A DNA stretch of 64,000 nucleotides from the NCBI GenBank assembly GCA_029573725.1, contig JAKQDQ010000090.1:62001-126000 (forward strand), written 5' to 3'. The DNA comes from Verrucomicrobiota bacterium. Lineage in GTDB: Bacteria > Verrucomicrobiota > Verrucomicrobiia > Limisphaerales > JADLHS01. Below, one piece after another: positions 30,487-31,028 of this stretch (position 1 is the stretch's first letter; every line of letters begins with the position of its first letter). The translations under genes and the position numbers were made by a program. A model generated the notes under the pieces. That model had not been told where the DNA came from, made no database searches, and saw only the letters and a program-made list of their open reading frames with translations.

Positions 30487-31028
30487 CACGAAAATTGCGA
30501 CCGCTCGCCATCCGCGAAATAAACGAACGGCCACTCTTCGGGGCGAGCGACAAATTGTTTCCGAACCGGATTTTCCAAAATGTAATCGGCCTTTTGCCGC
30601 CGGCTCTCGTCGTGCCGCAAGCGATGTTCAAAAAAATCGCGTTGCCAGCCGATGCCGATTTCTTTTGCCGTCCATTCCTTCCATTTGCTGATGACGCCTT
30701 GGATGGTTTTGTTGGAAGGCGGAAAGGAAATCAGCGCGTGCAAATGATCCGGCATCAGCAGAAACAGATGCGGCCACCACAAGAATCTTTCCTGCCGATG
30801 GCGGACAGTCTCGAACAAACGAACGGAAATTTCCGGCGCGGCGAGTTGATTGCCATTTCCCAGTTCCGGGTAGGGACGCTGCGCTGCGGCGTCCGGACAG
30901 CGCAGCGCGCTGTCCCTACCATAGTCAAATCGTTCCCGGCAGTTGATGGTGATGAAATAGATTTCGCGCTGCGGGTCAACCCACAATGGAACGTCGTGTG
31001 GCAATGTCTTTCTTTCGGGAACGTCCAT
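30483..31028 (-). CDS. REP-associated tyrosine transposase (RAYT, Y1/HUH transposase)
   Basis: LFLLMPDHLHALISFPPS (HUH = HLH) and KADYILENPVRKQFV (catalytic Tyr motif YIxxNP); flanked by GTAG-headed palindromes. Confidence 0.88.
   Translation of the reverse strand: MDVPERKTLPHDVPLWVDPQREIYFITINCRERFDYGRDSALRCPDAAAQRPYPELGNGNQLAAPEISVRLFETVRHRQERFLWWPHLFLLMPDHLHALISFPPSNKTIQGVISKWKEWTAKEIGIGWQRDFFEHRLRHDESRRQKADYILENPVRKQFVARPEEWPFVYFADGERSQFSW
30870..30919. repeat. REPIN-like element B (50 bp) inside the RAYT coding sequence
   Basis: GTAGGGACGCTGCGCTGCGGCGTCCGGACAGCGCAGCGCGCTGTCCCTAC. Confidence 0.85.

What the first reader, a model, noticed from the sequence alone, without database searches (positions are those of the whole stretch)
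30870..30919. REPIN inserted in frame inside its own RAYT gene
Minus-strand RAYT reads ...YFITINCRER-FDYGRDSALRCPDAAAQRPYPELGN-GNQLAAPEIS...; the middle about 25 aa is the translated 50-bp element B plus flanks. Related RAYTs, as I recall them, go directly from C-x-x-R to G-x-NQLA-like sequence. The frame stays open, and HLH and YILENP motifs downstream are intact. Flanking CGGGAACG/CCGGAACTG might be a target duplication. A transposase carrying its own substrate palindrome in its message could be autoregulated or be a cis-trap.
Basis: partly seen in the sequence, partly recalled or inferred. Interest (0 to 1): 0.85.

Follow-up and report, generated by a model that had tools for sequence, protein, structure and literature searches.

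The report
Transposase gene carrying its own repeat
A bacterial gene for a DNA-repeat-handling enzyme has a copy of that same short palindromic repeat inserted in frame in one of its surface loops; the insertion is real, has happened in several related enzymes, and is one case of a wider habit in this bacterial order of slipping these repeats in frame into protein genes.

Summary
The RAYT gene at 30483-31028 (-) encodes 181 aa, while its uninterrupted relatives have 157. The difference is a 52-bp back-to-back REPIN (30869-30920) plus 20 nt, in frame, in the loop between strand beta-1 and helix alpha-A. Its ends (GTAG), stem and GCT loop match the REPs flanking this gene, and the same 52-bp REPIN, one base different, occurs in other genomes of the order.

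It is not unique. Twelve other close RAYTs carry an insert at this site; nine are clearly REP-derived. Two RAYTs have separate in-frame REPs in a second loop.

It is also not specific to RAYTs. REPINs of this type sit in frame in a gyrB-like gene of the same genome and in pheT, mqnE, hemL (twice, same site), tilS, an MmeI-like gene and a UbiD-family gene in relatives. Intragenic GTAG-REPs were already known in the verrucomicrobium Opitutus terrae, and Rickettsia palindromic elements are analogous. I found no report of one inside a RAYT.

Best reading: a selfish REPIN insertion tolerated in a disordered loop, with the enzyme still under purifying selection. Autoregulation or a cis-trap is not supported: three close relatives have lost the palindrome. 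The proposed target duplication is no better than chance.

The parts
30483..31028 (-). RAYT (REP-associated tyrosine transposase, TnpA-REP) gene, 181 aa, with an in-frame REPIN insert
   Evidence: NCBIfam NF047646 REP_Tyr_transpos, 80.7 bits against a cut-off of 80; profile match to 4ER8 TnpArep E=2e-11; Foldseek best hit 4ER8
30852..30926 (-). Inserted segment (codons 35-59, DYGRDSALRCPDAAAQRPYPELGNG) that replaces a single codon in uninterrupted relatives; net +72 nt
   Evidence: Alignment with 157-aa relatives and DNA of about 25 uninterrupted loci; pLDDT about 50 in the model
30869..30920 (.). 52-bp REPIN: two inverted REPs with zero spacer
   Evidence: one base different from the 52-bp REPIN found in G072, G195, G200 and G211
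30895..30920 (-). REP unit 1: GGTAGGGACAGCGC-GCT-GCGCTGTCC, perfect stem, GCT loop, GTAG foot
30869..30894 (+). REP unit 2: GGTAGGGACGCTGC-GCT-GCGGCGTCC, one stem mismatch, GCT loop, GTAG foot
30738..30746 (-). HUH motif (H95-L96-H97) of the RAYT, intact
   Evidence: Alignments
30582..30584 (-). Catalytic tyrosine codon Y149 (ADYILENPVRK), intact
   Evidence: Alignments
30483..30485 (-). RAYT stop codon TAG, supplied by the GTAG foot of the downstream REP
   Evidence: GGTAGGGAC at 30479-30487(-) overlaps the ORF end
30357..30487 (.). Downstream REP pair with spacer (REPs at 30357-30382 + and 30462-30487 -)
31082..31196 (.). Upstream REP pair with spacer (REPs at 31082-31107 + and 31171-31196 -)
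28702..30342 (+). Type III restriction-modification mod-like DNA methyltransferase, upstream neighbour on the opposite strand to the RAYT
31237..33750 (+). Type III restriction-modification res-like endonuclease, downstream neighbour; mod and res are about 20 bp apart in a relative without the RAYT module (L084)

Best explanation
A 52-bp REPIN, of the same REP type as those that flank this RAYT gene, was inserted in frame into the gene at a surface loop between strand beta-1 and helix alpha-A, and was kept because the loop tolerates it. The REPIN carries its only stop (TAG, from GTAG) in one of three frames, so in the other two frames it is a translatable palindrome (here GRD-SALRCPD-AAAQRPY). 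The enzyme keeps its HUH and tyrosine motifs and stays under purifying selection. In relatives the insert has been inherited, has lost its palindrome, or has grown. The case is one instance of a general process in this order, in which REPINs enter protein-coding genes in frame. Shown: insertion, frame, relatives with and without insert, selection outside the insert, the same elements in other genes. Inferred: that a RAYT mobilised the REPIN, that the insertion is near-neutral, and that the protein is active.
For: Insert mapped against 157-aa relatives. Nine of 12 other inserts at the site are clearly REP-derived, and three have lost the REP signature. L034/G204 and P0003 have in-frame REP inserts in a second loop. 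The same 52-bp REPIN, one base different, is found in G072, G195, G200 and G211. In-frame REPINs occur in gyrB-like (same genome), pheT, mqnE, hemL x2, tilS, MmeI-like and UbiD-family genes. Insert pLDDT about 50, core mostly above 90. dN/dS about 0.07-0.21 outside the insert against six relatives. End branch no longer than that of the uninterrupted sister P0013 (0.11 against 0.12).
Against: No DNA could be fetched for the metagenomic insert-bearing relatives, so palindromes there are inferred from protein sequence. The 20 nt of extra junction sequence is unexplained. Only one further REPIN of this stem type was found elsewhere in this genome, so there is no sign that the RAYT is amplifying REPINs here. 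The own RAYT as mobiliser is not shown. Most dS values are near or above 1, so dN/dS is approximate.
Confidence: 0.85

Rival explanations
1. Functional self-regulation: the internal REPIN in the RAYT gene or message is bound by RAYT itself (as single-stranded DNA or as an mRNA hairpin) and limits its own production or acts as a cis-trap.
For: The internal element has the known REP recognition features (GTAG feet, GCT loop, near-perfect stems). The mRNA region folds more stably than shuffles (z = -2.8). REP-derived inserts lie at this site in nine other RAYTs.
Against: The palindrome is lost in the close relatives P0006, P0007 and P0009, which keep the gene. P0013 and most relatives have no insert. 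The same REPIN type sits in gyrB-like, hemL, mqnE, pheT and tilS genes, where self-regulation has no meaning. TnpA-REP is described as acting on single-stranded DNA (PMC8266576).
Confidence: 0.06
2. The RAYT is a pseudogene or a decaying copy, and the REPIN insertion has inactivated it.
For: The insert lies next to beta-1, which contributes GTAG contacts in E. coli TnpA-REP (PMC8266576). Few REPs are found elsewhere in this genome.
Against: The frame is intact. Catalytic motifs and invariant columns are kept in the window and in other insert-bearing lineages. dN/dS about 0.1. No longer branch than the uninterrupted sister. Insert-bearing proteins have diversified without frame loss.
Confidence: 0.07
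3. The loop insert is an ancestral, host-specific peptide that only resembles a REP by composition.
For: Several relatives have inserts of similar length at the site.
Against: The DNA is a REPIN one base from identical to elements in other genomes of the order. Most relatives lack it. Inserts in relatives follow the REP translation, including tandem REP units in P0005 and P0011.
Confidence: 0.01

Closest known systems
Intragenic GTAG-REPs (Di Nocera et al. 2013, PMC3733652), highest number in Opitutus terrae (Verrucomicrobiota)
   Same: GTAG-tagged palindromes, singly or as dimers, located in ORFs and encoding 20-30 aa; REPs that supply TAG stop codons to neighbouring ORFs; same phylum
   Different: Target genes named in that paper's main text are mostly replication and repair genes; a RAYT target is not mentioned in the sections read (its supplementary list was not read)
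Rickettsia palindromic elements (RPE; Ogata et al. 2000, as cited in PMC10969869 and PMC3733652)
   Same: Small palindromic DNA inserted in frame in protein genes, apparently tolerated
   Different: A different repeat superfamily; about 150 bp for the classical RPEs; CGTC repeats, which include RPE-4 and RPE-6, are not linked to transposase genes in PMC3733652, whereas here the host gene is the repeat's presumed own transposase
REPtron / RAYT with flanking inverted REPs (Nunvar 2010 PMC2817692; Bertels and Rainey 2011 PMC3116915)
   Same: Single-copy Y1 HUH transposase gene flanked by inverted REPs; REP overlapping the gene's 3' end
   Different: An additional complete REPIN lies inside the coding sequence
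TnpA-REP of E. coli (4ER8) and Stenotrophomonas maltophilia (PMC8266576)
   Same: HUH and Tyr motifs; GTAG foot; the REP has a GCT loop like REP-Sm
   Different: Insert of 24 aa in the beta-1/alpha-A loop; activity untested

Membership tests
RAYT / TnpA-REP | Y1 HUH transposase fold with HUH motif and catalytic tyrosine | tested here: met
   H95-L96-H97 and Y149 aligned to 4ER8; Foldseek best hit 4ER8, TM 0.60
RAYT / TnpA-REP | Curated family model | tested here: met
   NF047646, 80.7 bits against a cut-off of 80; Pfam Y1_Tnp is below its cut-off
RAYT / TnpA-REP | Gene flanked by inverted REPs | tested here: met
   REP pairs at 30357-30487 and 31082-31196
RAYT / TnpA-REP | Strand-specific cleavage of single-stranded REP | not testable with these tools
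   Needs a biochemical assay
REPIN | Two REPs in inverted orientation forming a hairpin, each with GTAG foot | tested here: met
   same 52-bp unit in other genomes
REPIN | Repeated, dispersed population in the host genome | tested here: inconclusive
   In the own genome REPs of this stem type lie only here and at one other site, plus two other-stem GGTAGGGAC hits; relatives hold up to about 40 hits
Protein-coding palindrome (RPE-like behaviour) | Palindrome in frame in genes with uninterrupted homologues | tested here: met
   RAYT and hemL against uninterrupted homologues; the other in-frame cases judged by family matches to the ORF
Rickettsia palindromic elements proper | Sequence homology to RPE families | not tested
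   No RPE sequences were compared; the GTAG and GCT features place it with GTAG-REPs

The most novel reading that the evidence does not exclude
RAYT genes recurrently acquire and keep their own REPIN because it feeds back on the transposase (a self-substrate that limits RAYT output or a resident trap), so the inserted site acts as a copy-number governor.
Probability: 0.06. Interest if true: 0.85.

Novelty: new variant of a known kind. Interest (0 to 1): 0.5.

Why it matters
It gives a natural experiment on two open points. First, REPINs are usually treated as extragenic; here they lie in frame in housekeeping genes and in the presumed transposase itself. Second, whether a RAYT still works with its own substrate palindrome in its gene can be tested directly, with an uninterrupted sister protein (P0013) as control.

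Tried and rejected
Target-site duplication: tested by local alignment against shuffles, p = 0.45. CT cleavage-site signature at REPIN ends: 6 of 50 ends have CT adjacent, about twice the 1-in-16 expectation, but TT is commoner; not pursued. Single origin of all inserts: AU p = 0.010 when P0013 must lie outside and P0111 is included, but p = 0.15 when P0013 may lie inside and P0111 is left out, so multiple origins at this site are favoured, not proven. Viral contigs: no relatives. Class-wide RAYT search gave one further locus, with a stop codon inside the match. A search with only the insert region found just five proteins including the query.

Full report
OBSERVATION. The minus-strand ORF 30483-31028 (181 aa) is a RAYT: NCBIfam REP-associated tyrosine transposase at 80.7 bits against a cut-off of 80, best structural and sequence relative E. 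coli TnpA-REP 4ER8. Inside it, at 30869-30920, lie two inverted REPs back to back. Each has the GTAG foot and a GCT loop; one has a perfect stem and the other one mismatch. The motif GGTAGGGAC occurs six times in 64 kb, all at this locus, against 0.15 expected.

MAPPING. Of 1240 homologues, the best 120 were listed; most are 157 aa and go from C-x-x-R-[F/G]-x directly to NQLA. About 25 uninterrupted loci show the same at the DNA level, for example ATCAACTGCCGGGAACGTGAC-CACAACCAG. The window has 25 codons (30852-30926) where these have one: net 72 nt, that is 52 nt of REPIN plus 20 nt of junction. Frame choice matters: GGTAGGGAC contains TAG in one frame only. Here it is read GGT-AGG-GAC (GRD). 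At the gene's 3' end the same motif in the downstream REP is read TGG-TAG and supplies the stop codon.

RELATIVES WITH INSERTS. Twelve other listed RAYTs carry an insert at the same place (P0002-P0012, P0111). Nine follow the REP translation; P0005 and P0011 have tandem REP units, and P0004 is enlarged. P0006, P0007 and P0009 have shorter inserts without a complete REP signature. Two RAYTs have an in-frame REP insert in a second loop after HLHALISFP: L034/G204 (17 aa) and P0003, which has both. On a tree built without the insert columns, the window groups with P0002, 3, 4, 6, 7, 9 and the uninterrupted P0013 (94/92), and P0005, 10, 11, 12 form a second clade (98/96*). Parsimony needs four changes. 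A single origin is rejected when P0013 is held outside and P0111 is included (AU p = 0.010), but not when P0013 may lie inside and P0111 is left out (p = 0.15). So several origins at this site are favoured, not proven; the second-loop insertions are separate events in any case.

THE PROTEIN. In the AlphaFold model (79 sequences, mean pLDDT 81) the insert is a low-confidence loop (about 50) between strand 24-30 and helix 65-80, and the core is mostly above 90. HUH and Tyr are intact. Outside the insert dN is 0.09-0.19 and dS 0.57-2.2 against six relatives, and the end branch is no longer than that of P0013. This argues against a pseudogene. Activity is untested.

NOT SPECIFIC TO RAYTS. I examined 25 sites, including the window and the own genome's second copy. 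Nine lie in frame in ORFs with recognisable family matches: the RAYT; a gyrB/parE-like gene in the same genome (C71, about 514964-515015); pheT; mqnE; hemL in two families of the order, at the same position; tilS; an MmeI-like gene; a UbiD-family decarboxylase. The 52-bp sequence in G072, G195, G200 and G211 is one base from the RAYT's. The hemL loop also holds other repeat-like inserts in many genomes. So in-frame entry of repeats into tolerant loops is common here.

LITERATURE. Intragenic GTAG-REPs were catalogued by Di Nocera et al. (PMC3733652), most numerous in Opitutus terrae, also verrucomicrobial; in-frame palindromes in Rickettsia are long known (cited there and in PMC10969869). TnpA-REP recognition of GTAG and of the GCT loop is described in PMC8266576. 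In the text I could search, no paper described a REPIN inside a RAYT gene; that is absence in an open-access subset.

CONTEXT. The RAYT and its flanking REP pairs (30357-31196) sit antisense between a type III mod and res gene that are about 20 bp apart in a relative (L084), so the module looks inserted there. Close copies are absent from the five same-genus and six same-family genomes searched. REPs of this stem type occur elsewhere in the genome only at C71. Horizontal arrival of the module is the simplest inference.

MECHANISM. Best reading: near-neutral retention of a translatable mobile palindrome. Autoregulation is possible in principle but has no positive evidence beyond the presence of an intact REP and a stable fold, and the loss of the palindrome in three close relatives speaks against it.

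Noticed in passing
L099 (own genome C71:513000-517000), REPIN at 1965-2016: A gyrB/parE-like gene of the same genome carries a 52-bp REPIN in frame (read as VGSARCADRTSQRDVPT) and, further on, a second repeat-like stretch (LTPSLSPSDGERVAQPGEGQ).
   Followed up: partly
L105 (G072) and L119 (G242): hemL genes of two different families carry an in-frame REPIN at the same loop; the same loop holds other repeat-like inserts in many genomes of the order.
   Followed up: partly
window 28702-33750: The RAYT-REP module lies antisense between type III mod and res genes that are adjacent in a relative without it.
   Followed up: partly
window 30483-30485; L026, L029, L034, L045, L047: The GTAG foot of the downstream REP supplies the RAYT stop codon in the window; REP positions relative to the gene end suggest the same in several relatives.
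   Followed up: partly
L034 (about 4600-8100): RAYT with a second-loop REP insert, surrounded by a dense, regularly spaced array of REPs (spacings near 110 and 146 nt).
   Followed up: no
L094 (G197:C16): A res C-terminal piece 89% identical to the window's lies directly after a partial mod in another family.
   Followed up: no
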